Below, piece after piece: positions 1 to 11,360 of a stretch of DNA of 34,019 nucleotides. Position 1 is the stretch's first letter. Every line of letters starts with the position of its first letter. This DNA is from Nitrospirota bacterium (GTDB lineage Bacteria > Nitrospirota > Leptospirillia > Leptospirillales > Leptospirillaceae): positions 1-34,019 of the forward strand of contig JAJZCZ010000013.1 of the NCBI GenBank assembly GCA_021828805.1, in the 5' to 3' direction. The position numbers and the translations under genes were made by a program. The notes below the pieces were generated by a model. It was not told the origin of the DNA. It searched no databases and saw nothing but the letters and a program-made list of their open reading frames with translations.

Positions 1-3000
1 GGAAGATTTTCGACAGTCCCGGCGCTCCTGCCTTTTCTCAGGAACACTGGACCCATGTGCGGCTGAACCCGGAAGTTCCGCTCCAGGTCGACGCTCTCCG
101 GATCCTTCGTCCGCCTTCCTCCTGCACGCTCCTCCACGATCCGGAGGACTGCCCCTCCTGCGAGATGCGTCTGACCCGGGGACTGCGGGAGATCCGCGGC
201 CCCTTCATGGAGGGGTTTTCCCTTCCGGACTGCGAGGAGTTCGAACACTGGATGACAGGAGTGCGGGAGGAAATTCAGGTTCGCGTCCGCTGGAGCACGG
301 ACCGGCTCATCCGCCTCTACGAAAAGCGCGGCACACCCTTCGAGGCCCTCGCCGTCCTCGAAGGGGTTCTCCGGATGGATCCGCTCGACGAGGGCTGCCA
401 CGGACGGATGATGCTCCTTCTGGCCGAGACCGGGAATACGATAGCGGCCCTGGCCCAGTACGAGATCCTCCGCAAGGAGCTCCGGGATCAGCTGGGACTT
501 GAGCCCTCCTCCGAGATCCGCGCTATTTACGACAAGATCCGCTTGCGTTCACCGGAACGCGAGCTTCCTCGTCTCAGCGAACGGGGAGCGCTCTTTCCGG
601 AGAATTTCTTTTCCCCCGAATGGCGACCGGCAACAGCTCTGTCTGTTGAGTTTTCGGAGGAGGGGGGGGATGAGGCCGGGGCGCCCTCCCCGGAGATCCG
701 GGAGGCGCTCGCCCGGGCCGCCCGGATGGCGGAGGATCTCGGAGGCGTCCCCGGACGGCGGGAGGCCCACTCTTTCCTTACCTGGTTTGGGATCTCCGGA
801 CAGGCCGAAGGGGCGGCGCGACGGGCCGCCCGGACGGCGCTCGCTCTCCGGAAGATTGTGGAGGAGATGCAGGACAAAGCCCGACAAAGGATCTCGATTG
901 CCGTGGGGATCCATGCGGGAAGAATCCTCCGGAGTGCCCCCGACACCCCTCCGGACCCCACCGGAACGGTTTCGAGAACAGCCCTGGCGCTTTCGATGCA
1001 GGCCGGGAGCGGTGAGATTCTGGTGTCGGCAGAAGCGGCCCGGCTCCTCAGGGGGCAGTTTCGTCTCGGGGAGGCGGGCGAGTTCCGGATCCTGGGTCGG
1101 AGGACGAAGGGCTACACGCTCCGGGGTGAGGCCGAAGCGGGAAATGAGCCCAGAGCCGGACATCTTTTCGGCCGGGACTCGGAACTCGGAACTCTCGAAG
1201 AACTCTGGAGACAAAACAACGGGGCGGTGGTCGTGGTGGAAGGCGATGCGGGCATCGGCAAGAGCGCCCTGGTCCGCTCCTTCGTCGCCTCTCCCGTCGT
1301 CCGGGAGGGTCTTCTTCTCACGATCGAATGTTTCCCCCAGTTCGTGGACAGCCCGCTTTACCCCGTCGTCCGTTCCCTCCGGGGATCCGCGGAGATCCCG
1401 GAGGAGATGGATGCCGGAGAGGCCTATCCTCGCCTTCTCCTCTACGTCCGCTCCCTCAGCCTTCCGGAGGAGCGCACCGCCGTCGCCCTTCTGGGAAAAC
1501 TCTTCTCTCTTCCTCCCCTTCCGGAGTTCCCTCTTCCGGCGATCTCCTCTGCGGAGATCCGGGAGGAGACCATGAAGCTCCTCCTCTCCCTCCTCTTAGC
1601 CCGATCCCGGAAGAGGCGCGTTCTTTTTCTCGTCGAGGATATCCACTGGACCGATGCCGCCACGGGGGACCTTCTCCGTCGCCTCCTCTCCGACCCCCTC
1701 TTCACGAGACGGATCTTCTTCCTGGTTACGACCCGTCCCGGAGAGGACCCGCCCTGGCTCGGCACCCTGCCGGATCGCACGGCGATCTGCCTTCCCCCTC
1801 TCGCCGCATTGGACAGCCGGGCCATGATCCAGTCGCTCAACGCCACCGGTTCTCTCCCCGACGCCGAGATCTCCCGGATCCTCGCCGCGGCCGACGGCGT
1901 CCCTCTCTTCCTCGAGGAGTTGACCCGCGAGAGGCTCGAGGCGGCCGGAGGGAGCGGATCCCTCCTTCTTCCCGGGACCTTGTCGGAGGTTCTCGCCTCC
2001 CGCCTCGACCGCCTCGAAGAGTCCCGGGTCCTTCTCCAGCGGGCCGCGGTCTACGGGCGGAGCGTTCCCATGGACCTTCTTCGCGCCCTCTCCCCCGAAC
2101 CTCCCGAGAGGTTCGACGCCCTTCTTGCCCGGGCTGTCCTGTCGGGCCTCGTCTCCCTCGACCCCGCGCCCGCCGGAGAACTCTTCTGTTTCCACCACGC
2201 CCTGATCGCCGAGGCTGCCCTCCAGACGCTCCCTCTGTCCCAACGAAAGCGTCTTTACCGGCAGATCGCGGAGACCCTCCGGGACCGCTTCCCCGAACGC
2301 GCCGCGGCGACCCCGGAGCACGTGGCCCTTTCCTTCGAGGCGGCCGGCGAGTTCCCTCTGGCCCTCCCGTGGTTCGAGAAGGCGGTCGCAATGGCCCTTG
2401 CGCACGGATTTCTTTCCGAGGCCGCCCGCTTCTCCCGGAAGGCGCTGGAGACGCTCTCTCTCTGCCCTCCCTCTCCGGAGCTCAAGGTGCAGGAGATCCG
2501 ACTCCTGATCGGACTGGGAACCCTTCTGTTCGACCTGGAGGGCAATGGAAGCCCCGAAGGGGAGGCGGCGATCCAAAAGGCCTGCTCCCTGATCGATTCC
2601 AAAACGGAGTTGACGGAGGAGACCTTCTACGCCTTTTACAACCTCTGGGCCTTCCAGTACGAGAAAGTCGATCTCCGCTCCTTCCGCGACCAGGCCGACT
2701 TCCTTCTCGGGCTGGCCGACCGTAGCGACCGCCGCGACTTCCGCATCGCCGCCCGCTATGCCGACGGCAGCACCGCCTGCTGGGAAGGCCGGTTTCCCCA
2801 CGCCATCGCCGCCCTCGACCGGGTCCTCGCGATTCCGGAAGAGACCGACGTCGGCCCGGAGGCGCAATCGATCGTCCGGGAGGCTCTGGACTACAAGCTC
2901 TGGACCCTCTGGTTTTTGGGCCGCTACCGGTCGGCGGGGCTTCTGGCCGACACACTTCTTGCGCGACTACGCTCCTCCGATGCCAACAGAAAGAAAGGCC

Positions 3001-3632
3001 ACCTCCTGACCTTTGCCATGGTCCTGTACCGCTACCTGAGGTTGTCCGACCGGGTCCTCGAGATCGCCGGCGACCTCGAGCAGGCGATTCATGCCATGAA
3101 GGTCCAGGTGTGGTCCGCCGCGGAGCGGGCGTTCCGGGGCTGGGCGATGGTTGAAAACGGCGATCCCGGCGGACTTCCCCACGTCCTTCAGGGGCTGGCT
3201 CTGGCCCGGAGGTACCACCCGATCGCCGAGAACAAGTACCTCTCCCTGCTCTCCGAGTGCTGGCTTCGCCTGGGGGAGCCCGGGAAGGCCTGTGAGGTGG
3301 CCCTGTCGGGGCTCCAGTTCTCGGAAAAGTCCGGGGCCCTCTTCTACGACGCGGAACTCTGGCGCCTGAGGGGAGAGGCGCTCCTCATGGAAGGCTCGCG
3401 CGAGGAGGCCCGAAGAAGCTTCGAAACCGCGATCGGCATCAGCCGGAGGCAGGGGGGGAAGGCCCTCGAGCTACGGGCCCTCTCAAGCCTTCTGCGGCTC
3501 TTTCTCTCCGGGAAAGAAAAAAGCCGGGCCCGGGAGCTCCTGCCCGACCTTTCCGGGATCCTCGACGACCCCGAGTCCGATCCCTCCCTCCCCGATATCC
3601 GGGAGGCCCTCGATCTTCGGAGCGCGATTTGA
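1..3632 (+). CDS. BTAD-domain transcriptional regulator with degenerate class III cyclase-like domain, AAA/NACHT-like ATPase and TPR-like C-terminus; 5' partial at the window edge
   Basis: The frame is open upstream of the listed GTG at 57 to base 3 (KIFDSPGAPAFSQEHWTHVRLNPEV...), so the start lies outside the window. BTAD-like segment ALAVLEGVLRMDPLDEGCHGRMMLLLAETGNTIAALAQYEILRKELRDQLGLEPSSEI; Walker A GDAGIGKS; Walker B-like RRVLFLVEDIHW; helical repeat C-terminus. Confidence 0.8.
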   Translation, partial: KIFDSPGAPAFSQEHWTHVRLNPEVPLQVDALRILRPPSSCTLLHDPEDCPSCEMRLTRGLREIRGPFMEGFSLPDCEEFEHWMTGVREEIQVRVRWSTDRLIRLYEKRGTPFEALAVLEGVLRMDPLDEGCHGRMMLLLAETGNTIAALAQYEILRKELRDQLGLEPSSEIRAIYDKIRLRSPERELPRLSERGALFPENFFSPEWRPATALSVEFSEEGGDEAGAPSPEIREALARAARMAEDLGGVPGRREAHSFLTWFGISGQAEGAARRAARTALALRKIVEEMQDKARQRISIAVGIHAGRILRSAPDTPPDPTGTVSRTALALSMQAGSGEILVSAEAARLLRGQFRLGEAGEFRILGRRTKGYTLRGEAEAGNEPRAGHLFGRDSELGTLEELWRQNNGAVVVVEGDAGIGKSALVRSFVASPVVREGLLLTIECFPQFVDSPLYPVVRSLRGSAEIPEEMDAGEAYPRLLLYVRSLSLPEERTAVALLGKLFSLPPLPEFPLPAISSAEIREETMKLLLSLLLARSRKRRVLFLVEDIHWTDAATGDLLRRLLSDPLFTRRIFFLVTTRPGEDPPWLGTLPDRTAICLPPLAALDSRAMIQSLNATGSLPDAEISRILAAADGVPLFLEELTRERLEAAGGSGSLLLPGTLSEVLASRLDRLEESRVLLQRAAVYGRSVPMDLLRALSPEPPERFDALLARAVLSGLVSLDPAPAGELFCFHHALIAEAALQTLPLSQRKRLYRQIAETLRDRFPERAAATPEHVALSFEAAGEFPLALPWFEKAVAMALAHGFLSEAARFSRKALETLSLCPPSPELKVQEIRLLIGLGTLLFDLEGNGSPEGEAAIQKACSLIDSKTELTEETFYAFYNLWAFQYEKVDLRSFRDQADFLLGLADRSDRRDFRIAARYADGSTACWEGRFPHAIAALDRVLAIPEETDVGPEAQSIVREALDYKLWTLWFLGRYRSAGLLADTLLARLRSSDANRKKGHLLTFAMVLYRYLRLSDRVLEIAGDLEQAIHAMKVQVWSAAERAFRGWAMVENGDPGGLPHVLQGLALARRYHPIAENKYLSLLSECWLRLGEPGKACEVALSGLQFSEKSGALFYDAELWRLRGEALLMEGSREEARRSFETAIGISRRQGGKALELRALSSLLRLFLSGKEKSRARELLPDLSGILDDPESDPSLPDIREALDLRSAI

Positions 3633-7712: not shown

Positions 7713-8204
7713 ATGAAGGAAGACGGGAAGACATCGGACAGGGGAGAGCGTTCCCCGGAGGGAGGCGATTCCGGGGATCTGGCCCGGGAGATCCGCCGGC
7801 TTCTCGAGGTCAGCGATCAGCGGCTCGAGCGGATCGAGGCCGAAGTGCGCGAGATGGACGAGCGCAATCGCCGGGCCTACGAACGTCTTGCGGGGACGCT
7901 CTCGCCCAGCCGGAGGGAGTGGAGCTTCATGGCGGGAGGGGCCGTTGTGGTGGTGATTCTCCTGACACTCCTTTTCTTCACCCTCCCCCGGTCCGGACAG
8001 CGGCCGGCGGCGCCGGTCTCCTCCGGGCTCGCCCGTCCCGACCAGATGGGAGAGAAGGAGCGGTATGTCTATTTCGTGGGCCGCTGGTACCTGGGTGTCC
8101 GCGACCGCATGTCCACCTCGGAGAGAAAGTTCCTCGAAAATTACTTAAAGCCCTTCGACAACATCGATGCCGATCTGAAGGCGCGCAAGGAAGCGGGGCT
8201 CTAG
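7713..8204 (+). CDS. Hypothetical protein with predicted coiled N-terminus and one TM helix
   Basis: RBS-like GGGAGGGAGG upstream of ATG; EIRRLLEVSDQRLERIEAEVREMDERN... then WSFMAGGAVVVVILLTLLFFTLP. Confidence 0.7.
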   Translation: MKEDGKTSDRGERSPEGGDSGDLAREIRRLLEVSDQRLERIEAEVREMDERNRRAYERLAGTLSPSRREWSFMAGGAVVVVILLTLLFFTLPRSGQRPAAPVSSGLARPDQMGEKERYVYFVGRWYLGVRDRMSTSERKFLENYLKPFDNIDADLKARKEAGL

Positions 8205-8303: not shown

Positions 8304-9137
8304 CTAGCGCGATGCCGACGACGTTCGGGGATCGGCGGGGCGCGAATGGCTGTTGACGTAGGCGGCCACATCCCACGCCTGCTGGTCTGAAAGGCTCTTC
8401 CCCTTGGAGAGCGGCATGTTCATCCGGAGAAAGCCGGCCAGTTCCCGGACGTTCGAGAAGCCGGCGCCCCGATTGTAGGAGTGGGGGCCCCAGACCGGAG
8501 GAAAGGCGACCTGACCGAGGTCTGCCTTGGTGCCCTGGCCGTCGAGACCATGGCAAAGGGCGCAACGGGCTTCGAAGAGGACCTTGCCCCGGTGGAGGCT
8601 GGGGGTCCTGTCGGGCTTGGGAAGACGGACGATCCCCTGTCCCTTGAGGTAGAGGCCGATGGGGGCTCCCCGGGAGACCCAGTAGGCGTAGGCGACGATG
8701 GCCTTCATGGTGTCGCTGTTCGCGGGCGGCGGTGTGCCGTTGAGGGAGAAGCGGAAGCATCCCTGGATCCTCTCCTCGAGGGTGTTGACCTTGTGGTTCT
8801 TGGACCGATAGCGGGGATAGGTCCCGACGGCTCCCCAGAGGGGAGCGCTGTAGGGTTTGATCCCCCGGTCGAGATGGCAGGATTCGCAGGTCAGGTCGTT
8901 TCCGACATATTTTTTGGCGTACAGGTTCGTGTGGATGAAAATGAGCTCTCCCTTGCGGATCAGACGGCCCATCGGCCCGTCGGGAAGGGATCCTTCGGCC
9001 GGGGGAGCAAAGAACTGGAAGTTCTGGTTTCCGGAGGCCAGGGCCTCAGAGGGCCCCAGGGCAACCGGAAGCGCGAGGGAGAAGAGGAAGACGAGGACGG
9101 ACCGGAGCCTCCCCGGGGGTGTCGAACCGATAGTCAT
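8304..9137 (-). CDS. tsdA: Diheme c-type cytochrome, TsdA-like thiosulfate dehydrogenase / tetrathionate reductase candidate
   Basis: Signal peptide; CESCH (8874-8888) and CALCH (8550-8564); RGIKPYSAPLWGAVGTYPRYRSKNHKVNTLEERIQGCFRFSLNG and MNMPLSKGKSLSDQQAWDVAAYVN resemble TsdA signature regions. Confidence 0.72.
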   Translation of the reverse strand: MTIGSTPPGRLRSVLVFLFSLALPVALGPSEALASGNQNFQFFAPPAEGSLPDGPMGRLIRKGELIFIHTNLYAKKYVGNDLTCESCHLDRGIKPYSAPLWGAVGTYPRYRSKNHKVNTLEERIQGCFRFSLNGTPPPANSDTMKAIVAYAYWVSRGAPIGLYLKGQGIVRLPKPDRTPSLHRGKVLFEARCALCHGLDGQGTKADLGQVAFPPVWGPHSYNRGAGFSNVRELAGFLRMNMPLSKGKSLSDQQAWDVAAYVNSHSRPADPRTSSASR

Positions 9138-9943
9138 GGACTGTTGGCCTCCTTCTTTTCCGGGATGAGCCGGAGCCTGTCGGGCGAGTTTTTAGGGGAG
9201 ATCGTTCCGTAATCCGGAGGGGTGAGGCTTGCGAAGTACTGCGCCACCGCCTTGATCTCCCTGTTTTTGAGCTTCGAGGCGATGCCCCGCATGAGACCTT
9301 CCGGATCGTCTTTTCTGTCGACGACGGCGAAGCTCTTGATCTGCTGCATCAAATAGGTCTTGCTCTGCCCGGCGATGTAGGGAAAGTTGGGGGGAATGCC
9401 GCGCCCGTCTTCGCCGTGGCAGAGAATGCAGGCCGGAATGTTTCTGTCCCACAGGCCCCGTCGGGCGATGCGCCGGCCGAGGGAGCGCAGGGAGGGGTCG
9501 AACTCCGAGGGGTCGTGGAGCTTGGGTGTGCGGACAGTCGAATAATAGAGCGCGACCGCACGGATGTCGCTTTTTGAAAAGTTTCTCACGACCCGGGCCA
9601 TGAAGGGGGAAAAACGGGTTCCCTTCTGGACGCCTCGGATTTCCCGGTAGATATAGGTCGCGGTTTGCCCGGCGATCCGGGGGATCCCCACCGAGGGCAT
9701 GCCTCCGCCGTTGATCCGGTGGCATTCGGCGCAGGCGGTCGACCCGGAAAACCCGTTTCCCTTCATCGCGATGAGATGGCCCAGGGAGATCTCCGCCGCC
9801 TGGCCCCCTTCCGCCATCGCCCGGGGAGTCCCGCCGGGACAAAGAGTCAGCACGGCAAGGGCGAAGAGGGCCGGAAGAAGAAGCGGTCGCCTCCGGGCGG
9901 GCGAGAGCATGTTCCGGAAAGAGCGGGGGGAAGAGGGGTCCAT
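9134..9943 (-). CDS. tsdB: Diheme cytochrome c4-like protein, TsdB-like electron partner candidate
   Basis: Signal peptide; CAECH and CILCH motifs; GIPRIAGQ...YIYREIRGVQKGTR / FPYIAGQSKTYLMQQIKSF c4-like duplicated halves. Stop overlaps the start of the next gene (ATGA on minus strand, 9134-9137). The ORF extends to 10039, but an RBS-like AGGA precedes the ATG at 9943. Confidence 0.7.
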   Translation of the reverse strand: MDPSSPRSFRNMLSPARRRPLLLPALFALAVLTLCPGGTPRAMAEGGQAAEISLGHLIAMKGNGFSGSTACAECHRINGGGMPSVGIPRIAGQTATYIYREIRGVQKGTRFSPFMARVVRNFSKSDIRAVALYYSTVRTPKLHDPSEFDPSLRSLGRRIARRGLWDRNIPACILCHGEDGRGIPPNFPYIAGQSKTYLMQQIKSFAVVDRKDDPEGLMRGIASKLKNREIKAVAQYFASLTPPDYGTISPKNSPDRLRLIPEKKEANSP

Positions 9944-10087
9944 CGAGATTTTTCCTGACCACAGATCATGGCGTCCTATTCCGGTTAAGTACCGGACCAT
10001 CGTGCCTCTCATTATCGAATCTCCCGGACAACTCTGCAAGACGGGGGAGACTGCCTCTCCCTCCGGCGGCGATCCGGTGGCGAACTA

Positions 10088-10116
10088 AAGACGCCTTCCG
10101 GAAGGCGGGGCGTCTT
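10088..10116. repeat. Nested inverted repeat AAGACGCCTTCCGGAAGGCGGGGCGTCTT in the divergent tsdB-gap intergenic region
   Basis: Inner perfect 16-bp palindrome CGCCTTCCGGAAGGCG (10092-10107); outer arms AAGACGCC (10088-10095) and GGCGTCTT (10109-10116). Confidence 0.7.
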
Positions 10117-10332
10117 GAACGTCCTGAAAAAAATCCGCATAATCTGAACGTGGTTCCCCATCTTCCCTTCCTTAGTGTCCGGACGATTCCTGACGCGCCT
10201 CTGTTCGCTCAAGTCGGTGGCATTTCAGGATATTTTTATGACAAGATTCCTTTTTGGTTCGGGAGGAGACGACGATGGGAAAGGCCATATTGACCCTGAA
10301 TGGCGACAACAATTTTTGTGGAAAATAGGTGA

Positions 10333-11360
<1,028 letters not shown>

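What the first reader, a model, noticed from the sequence alone, without database searches (positions are those of the whole stretch)
8304..9943. TsdB-TsdA-like thiosulfate dehydrogenase pair with the diagnostic Cys haem ligand motif
Both minus-strand genes encode secreted diheme cytochromes, translationally coupled by ATGA in the order c4-like then TsdA-like, which is the known tsdB-tsdA order. The distal gene carries ERIQGCFRFSLNG; the Cys (codon 8757-8759) aligns by motif with the unusual axial Cys ligand of TsdA haem 1. It also has an AYWVSRGAPIG segment and MNMP near the second haem region, where the second-haem Met ligand is expected. If the host is an iron-oxidising Leptospirillum-type organism, a periplasmic tetrathionate/thiosulfate enzyme would be an unexpected sulfur-redox capability. 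The organism assignment is inference.
Basis: partly seen in the sequence, partly recalled or inferred. Interest (0 to 1): 0.68.

Follow-up and report, generated by a model that had tools for sequence, protein, structure and literature searches.

The report
Thiosulfate dehydrogenase pair in Leptospirillum-type acidophile
The two genes make a genuine TsdB-TsdA enzyme pair that joins two thiosulfate molecules into tetrathionate; such pairs are common in other bacteria, but here they recur through a family whose named members are textbook iron-only oxidisers, which suggests that these microbes may also use sulfur compounds.

Summary
The published TsdA active-site residues that I could test are present, and the predicted fold matches solved TsdA at 1.8-2.1 A and SoxA poorly. 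The partner matches the TsdB half of the M. purpuratum TsdBA fusion. This is a tsdBA pair: a new member of a known enzyme class.

It is not an oddity of one assembly. The locus (pyrE-PBP1A-tsdA/tsdB-gap-pgk-tpi-secG-opp) is kept across the genus, the same genome holds a second tsdBA pair, and 18 of 21 family genomes encode TsdA homologues. The host is very likely a Leptospirillaceae acidophile. No SoxZ or DoxD was found in its genome, which is only 78% complete.

More unusual, outside the window: relatives carry tetrahaem TsdBA fusions and a five-haem fusion of a triheme dehydrogenase cytochrome subunit with TsdA, beside a Tat-signal protein and a solute-binding protein that mirror the tsd-sbp-doxDA cluster of Acidithiobacillus ferrooxidans. 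Thiosulfate oxidation is the likelier direction; activity and physiology are untested.

The parts
8304..9137 (-). tsdA: secreted dihaem thiosulfate dehydrogenase/tetrathionate reductase, 277 aa
   Evidence: phmmer E=1.6e-67 to 5lo9, 4e-54 to AvTsdA; Pfam PF21342 above cut-off; fold match to all solved TsdA
9134..9943 (-). tsdB: secreted dihaem c4-type electron acceptor, 269 aa
   Evidence: phmmer E=2.9e-30 to the TsdB half of 5lo9 and 9e-25 to cytochrome c4
9134..9137 (-). ATGA overlap: tsdB stop and tsdA start, translational coupling
   Evidence: conserved in 8 relatives
8757..8759 (-). codon of Cys127, predicted distal ligand of haem 1 and catalytic nucleophile
   Evidence: aligns with AvTsdA Cys123; invariant in 114 aligned rows
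8874..8888 (-). haem 1 motif CESCH (residues 84-88)
   Evidence: invariant
8550..8564 (-). haem 2 motif CALCH (residues 192-196)
   Evidence: invariant
8415..8420 (-). Asn240-Met241: Met241 is the predicted distal ligand of haem 2; Asn replaces Av Lys208 as in C. jejuni and M. purpuratum
8769..8771 (-). Arg123, equivalent of the substrate-binding AvTsdA Arg119
8745..8747 (-). Ser131, equivalent of AvTsdA Ser127 (invariant in TsdA, absent in SoxA)
   Evidence: kept in 111 of 114 rows
9416..9430 (-). TsdB second haem motif CILCH
9719..9733 (-). TsdB first haem motif CAECH
9944..10335 (.). intergenic region between the divergent tsdB and gap genes, where the tsdBA promoter is expected
   Evidence: gene layout; no sigma-70 consensus facing tsdB was found

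Best explanation
A tsdBA operon. TsdA is a periplasmic dihaem thiosulfate dehydrogenase with His/Cys-ligated haem 1 and His/Met-ligated haem 2. Two thiosulfates are joined at Cys127 through an S-thiosulfonate intermediate to give tetrathionate (mechanism inferred from A. vinosum TsdA). Electrons pass to haem 2, then to the dihaem c4-type partner TsdB, and probably on to a cbb3-type oxidase and O2. The host is very likely a Leptospirillaceae acidophile, for which thiosulfate released by metal-sulfide dissolution would be a side electron donor far more reducing than Fe(II). Shown here: gene structure, homology, catalytic residues, fold, conserved locus, second copy, an oxidase gene in the host genome. 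Inferred: activity, direction, electron route, physiological role.
For: Sequence match to both characterised TsdA structures and to TsdB; all testable active-site residues present; predicted model (pLDDT 80.6) superposes on TsdA at 1.8-2.1 A with SoxA at TM about 0.3; clade with proteobacterial TsdA including MpTsdBA; tsdB beside tsdA with conserved ATGA; conserved locus; second pair in the same genome; cbb3-like oxidase subunit in the host and all family genomes; an Acetobacter plasmid has tsdB-tsdA directly before a cbb3-type oxidase. Direction: MpTsdBA, the closest solved enzyme, is biased to oxidation, and the reductive C. jejuni TsdA does not reduce TsdB.
Against: No activity data. TsdA enzymes work in both directions, and Asn240 is shared with the reductive C. 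jejuni enzyme. No downstream sulfur pathway was found: SoxZ and DoxD are absent from the 78%-complete host genome; tetrathionate hydrolase and other sulfur genes were not searched. The oxidase match is below the strict CcoN cut-off. Leptospirilli are described as iron-only oxidisers (PMC1142338).
Confidence: 0.72

Rival explanations
1. Same enzyme, opposite physiological direction: a tetrathionate reductase that disposes of electrons on tetrathionate when O2 is short.
For: TsdA is bidirectional; Asn240 in place of Lys is also found in the reductive C. jejuni TsdA.
Against: A TsdB partner is present, and C. jejuni TsdA does not reduce TsdB; MpTsdBA also has Asn at this position and is biased to oxidation; leptospirilli are probably obligate aerobes (PMC1142338).
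Confidence: 0.14
2. Same reaction, but as protection: thiosulfate, unstable at low pH, is cleared from the periplasm and little or no energy is gained.
For: No Sox or DoxD for further oxidation was found in the host, and known members of the family do not grow on sulfur compounds (PMC1142338).
Against: A dedicated dihaem acceptor TsdB and two gene pairs point to electron use.
Confidence: 0.09
3. A non-enzymatic TsdA-like electron carrier to a terminal oxidase, like C. jejuni CccC.
For: Same overall family; a cbb3-like oxidase is present in the genome.
Against: CccC has Met instead of the Cys ligand and Ala instead of Asn; the window protein has Cys127 and Asn240 and the substrate-binding Arg and Ser.
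Confidence: 0.03
4. A SoxA-type subunit of a Sox thiosulfate-oxidising complex.
For: Shared SoxA/TsdA Pfam domain and weak SoxA hits.
Against: SoxA model TIGR04484 scores 53.8 against a cut-off of 110; no SoxZ in the 13 genus genomes searched; TM about 0.3 to SoxA against about 0.75 to TsdA; Ser131 is a TsdA-only residue.
Confidence: 0.01

Closest known systems
Marichromatium purpuratum TsdBA (PDB 5lo9)
   Same: Best sequence and structure match for both proteins; same Cys haem ligand, Arg, Ser, and Asn-Met at haem 2
   Different: There TsdB and TsdA are one fused chain; here they are two genes joined by ATGA. Identity 45% in the structural alignment
Allochromatium vinosum TsdA (PDB 4v2k, 4wq7)
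   Same: Same fold (2.0 A), Cys123, Arg119 and Ser127 equivalents
   Different: Av has Lys208 before the haem-2 Met (Asn240 here) and Arg109 where the window has Lys113
Campylobacter jejuni TsdA (tetrathionate reductase)
   Same: Cys ligand and Asn-Met at haem 2
   Different: C. jejuni TsdA does not reduce TsdB and works as a tetrathionate reductase
Acidithiobacillus ferrooxidans TSD (AFE_0042) with SBP and DoxDA
   Same: Forms tetrathionate from thiosulfate in another iron/sulfur acidophile; its Tat-SBP neighbourhood is mirrored beside TsdA fusions in relatives of the host
   Different: TSD is described as a kind of enzyme different from TsdA (PMC6335251); the Tat protein was not found in the host genome

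Membership tests
TsdA thiosulfate dehydrogenase | Two c-type haem motifs in a secreted protein of about 25-30 kDa | tested here: met
   CESCH and CALCH; predicted mature mass 26.6 kDa; signal peptide judged by eye
TsdA thiosulfate dehydrogenase | Cys distal ligand of haem 1 (AvTsdA Cys123) | tested here: met
   Cys127 aligns with it; the only non-haem-motif cysteine. Ligation itself not observed
TsdA thiosulfate dehydrogenase | Arg119 (invariant) and Ser127 (invariant in TsdA only); Arg109 or Lys | tested here: met
   Arg123, Ser131, Lys113
TsdA thiosulfate dehydrogenase | Met distal ligand of haem 2 | tested here: met
   Met241 in NMPL, invariant in 114 rows
TsdA thiosulfate dehydrogenase | TsdA fold | tested here: met
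   1.8-2.1 A to 5lo9, 4v2k, 4wq7 from a model of pLDDT 80.6
TsdA thiosulfate dehydrogenase | Groups with characterised TsdA in phylogeny | tested here: met
   long-branch AvTsdA is poorly placed, MpTsdBA groups well
TsdA thiosulfate dehydrogenase | Thiosulfate dehydrogenase or tetrathionate reductase activity | not testable with these tools
   needs purified protein
TsdB | Dihaem c4-type cytochrome encoded beside or fused to tsdA | tested here: met
   E=2.9e-30 to the TsdB half of 5lo9, ATGA overlap with tsdA
TsdB | Accepts electrons from TsdA | not testable with these tools
   needs assay
SoxA (SoxAX) | Passes the SoxA equivalog model and occurs with SoxXYZ | tested here: not met
   53.8 of 110 bits; no SoxZ in the genus genomes searched
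CccC-type TsdA relative | Met in place of the haem-1 Cys, Ala before the haem-2 Met | tested here: not met
   Cys127 and Asn240
Leptospirillaceae (host) | Genome kinship to Leptospirillum | tested here: inconclusive
   Nearest titled records are 'Nitrospirae bacterium' MAGs; kinship goes from family straight to phylum, as expected for the single-family class Leptospirillia; G015 is one contig of 2,559,538 bp, fitting complete L. ferrooxidans C2-3 at 2.5 Mb; no 16S found in G000

The most novel reading that the evidence does not exclude
Leptospirillaceae, regarded as iron-only, carry a modular TsdA-based thiosulfate system: two tsdBA pairs in the host, and in relatives a tetrahaem TsdBA or a five-haem fusion (triheme alcohol/glucose-dehydrogenase cytochrome subunit joined to TsdA) placed beside a Tat-signal TSD-like protein and a solute-binding protein, in the position that DoxDA holds in A. 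ferrooxidans. In this reading TsdA-type cytochromes replace DoxDA as the electron outlet of the acidophilic TSD enzyme, whose acceptor is unknown, and thiosulfate is a real second electron donor of these iron oxidisers.
Probability: 0.35. Interest if true: 0.68.

Novelty: new member of a known kind. Interest (0 to 1): 0.45.

Why it matters
Leptospirilli are described as using, as far as is known, only iron as electron donor (PMC1142338). A family-wide, duplicated tsdBA means that they could draw electrons from thiosulfate, an intermediate of pyrite dissolution, at about +0.2 V (Em +198 mV, PMC9562282 abstract) instead of about +0.77 V for Fe(II), which would ease CO2 fixation and change electron and sulfur budgets in mine drainage and bioleaching. 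Of the five open-access papers that hold both 'Leptospirillum' and 'TsdA' I opened three, and none assigns TsdA to Leptospirillum. The fused relatives also make a gap testable: the electron acceptor of the acidophilic TSD enzyme, which reduces neither ubiquinone nor horse cytochrome c (PMC6335251).

Tried and rejected
SoxA membership: tested and rejected. TGA codons reported 'inside' several relatives' TsdA copies, which might have meant a recoded codon: in the case shown through its stop (L107) the stop lies at the natural C-terminus, so I took this as an alignment artefact. Structure prediction from the single sequence was useless (pLDDT 39.8); repeated with an alignment. 16S search in the host and its same-genus genomes found nothing. 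No RNA family or tRNA in the window. The promoter scan gave no sigma-70 consensus facing tsdB. The 92-row tree has long branches (AvTsdA, pentahaem, tetrahaem) whose mutual placement I do not trust, and its support for the order of the family copies A1-A3 was not reproduced in the trimmed tree. Literature searches on Leptospirillum plus TsdA or thiosulfate dehydrogenase gave nothing direct; the Leptospirillum group II/III and IV genome papers and the C2-3 genome paper are not held.

Full report
OBSERVATION. Both genes are present exactly as described: tsdA at 9137-8304 and tsdB at 9943-9134 on the minus strand, overlapping by ATGA. TsdA has exactly five cysteines, four in CESCH (84-88) and CALCH (192-196) plus Cys127, codon 8757-8759. 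An ATGA lies at the tsdA start in all eight related loci checked.

IDENTITY. By sequence TsdA matches Marichromatium purpuratum TsdBA (E=1.6e-67, residues 233-482) and Allochromatium vinosum TsdA (E=4e-54), with SoxA far behind (7.7e-12). TsdB matches the TsdB half of the same M. purpuratum fusion (E=2.9e-30) and cytochrome c4 (9e-25). The Pfam SoxA/TsdA domain PF21342 is above its cut-off; the SoxA equivalog is far below its cut-off, 53.8 against 110 bits.

RESIDUES. Published work on AvTsdA names Cys123 (haem ligand that carries the S-thiosulfonate intermediate), Arg119, Ser127 (invariant in TsdA, not present in SoxA) and Arg109 (Lys in some TsdA) (PMC4423706). The window protein has Cys127, Arg123, Ser131 and Lys113 at these places. 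Cys127, Arg123 and Met241 are invariant in 114 aligned rows, and Ser131 is kept in 111. Asn240 replaces Av Lys208, as in M. purpuratum and C. jejuni. A CccC-type carrier, with Met for Cys and Ala for Asn, is excluded. An AlphaFold2 model built on 38 relatives (pLDDT 80.6) matches the solved TsdA structures at 1.8-2.1 A and SoxA only at TM about 0.3.

PHYLOGENY. In the large tree the window protein sits in a 28-row clade of its own family (100*), beside proteobacterial TsdA that include MpTsdBA. In a trimmed tree without the long branches, the 19 family rows and the 19 proteobacterial rows are two sides of one branch (100/100), and the window's group A1 (the copy at the gap locus) is supported at 98/99; the order among the family copies A1, A2 and A3 is weak.

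HOST AND LOCUS. The genome (1.88 Mb, 150 contigs, 78% complete) belongs to a genus with 13 other genomes held; the best titled matches are 'Nitrospirae bacterium' MAGs. The tool's kinship jumps from family to phylum, as expected for Leptospirillia, a class of one order and one family. Family member G015 is a single contig of 2,559,538 bp; complete L. ferrooxidans C2-3 is 2.5 Mb with 50% GC (PMC7231039), and three G015 loci have 51-53% GC. I recall 2,559,538 bp as the published C2-3 size but could not check it. The order pyrE-PBP1A-hypothetical-tsdA/tsdB-gap-pgk-tpi-secG-opp is conserved throughout the genus, which argues strongly against contamination. A second tsdBA pair (59% and 58% identical) lies on contig C146. 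TsdA homologues occur in 18 of 21 family genomes.

OTHER SULFUR AND ELECTRON GENES. No SoxZ was found in the host or its 12 searched congeners, and no DoxD in the host, while a 390-aa DoxD protein occurs in G001. A cbb3-like oxidase subunit occurs in all 21 family genomes, below the strict TIGR00780 cut-off.

MECHANISM. Best reading: thiosulfate to tetrathionate at haem 1, electrons to haem 2, TsdB, then probably a cbb3-type oxidase. Oxidation is favoured because MpTsdBA, the closest solved enzyme, is biased to oxidation, while the reductive C. jejuni enzyme does not reduce TsdB; an Acetobacter plasmid puts tsdB-tsdA directly before a cbb3-type oxidase. Reduction and simple scavenging are not excluded.

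BEYOND THE WINDOW. Relatives encode (i) a tetrahaem TsdBA fusion (487 aa, L115 and L143), (ii) a diverged tandem TsdA (L114, L116), and (iii) a five-haem protein of about 700 aa in which a triheme alcohol/glucose-dehydrogenase cytochrome subunit (E=6e-97) is joined to TsdA (E=9e-51). The five-haem fusion was found in 5 of 198 genomes sampled from the phylum, all in this family. In G018 the unfused order is tsdB-tsdA-triheme. Types (i) and (iii), and DoxD in G001, each sit beside a Tat-signal protein and an SBP_bac_11 protein. In A. ferrooxidans the corresponding neighbours are AFE_0042 (Tat), AFE_0043 (SBP) and AFE_0044 (DoxDA) (PMC2754497), and AFE_0042 is the thiosulfate dehydrogenase TSD of about 25 kDa (PMC6335251). 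The Tat protein here has a mature mass of about 25.5 kDa with the cleavage site guessed. I had no AFE_0042 sequence, so this link rests on context and size. A Tat-SBP-TsdB/TsdA association also occurs on Bosea and Paraburkholderia plasmids.

NOVELTY. The window feature itself is a new member of a known kind. The five-haem fusion and its cassette are the more novel lead; they lie outside the window and were not found in the incomplete host genome.

Noticed in passing
L118 1815-3334 (G000:C146): Second tsdB-tsdA pair in the host genome, 58-59% identical to the window pair, also with an ATGA overlap; downstream are squalene/phytoene synthase-like genes in related loci.
   Followed up: partly
L113 4047-6134, L112 8998-11130, L119 3655-5796, L141 4905-6992, L144 674-2797: Five-haem fusion of a triheme alcohol/glucose-dehydrogenase-type cytochrome subunit with TsdA, about 700 aa, in five family genomes (80-90% identical across genera); not seen elsewhere in 198 phylum genomes sampled.
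   Followed up: partly
L112 6854-8726, L115 2235-4118, L139 6512-9815: Conserved Tat-signal protein plus SBP_bac_11 pair beside three alternative candidate thiosulfate enzymes (five-haem TsdA, tetrahaem TsdBA, DoxD), mirroring the tsd-sbp-doxDA cluster of A. ferrooxidans.
   Followed up: partly
L140 5904-9323 (G018): Unfused tsdB, tsdA and a triheme dehydrogenase-type cytochrome in a row on one strand, a possible precursor arrangement of the five-haem fusion.
   Followed up: no
L114 5048-5872 (G015): Tandem diverged TsdA paralogue next to tsdBA that keeps the Cys ligand but has Ala at the Ser127 position.
   Followed up: no
window 7713-8204: Small hypothetical protein with a predicted membrane segment and no Pfam match, conserved beside tsdA throughout the genus (54-77% identity).
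   Followed up: no
window 57-3632: Large protein with BTAD, adenylate/guanylate cyclase, AAA and TPR domains, similar to TOMM kinase/cyclase fusion proteins but below that model's cut-off.
   Followed up: no
L147 3131-6618 (Bosea plasmid), L148 4911-8478 (Paraburkholderia plasmid): TsdB/TsdA (fused in Bosea) next to the same Tat-signal and solute-binding proteins, so the association crosses phyla.
   Followed up: partly
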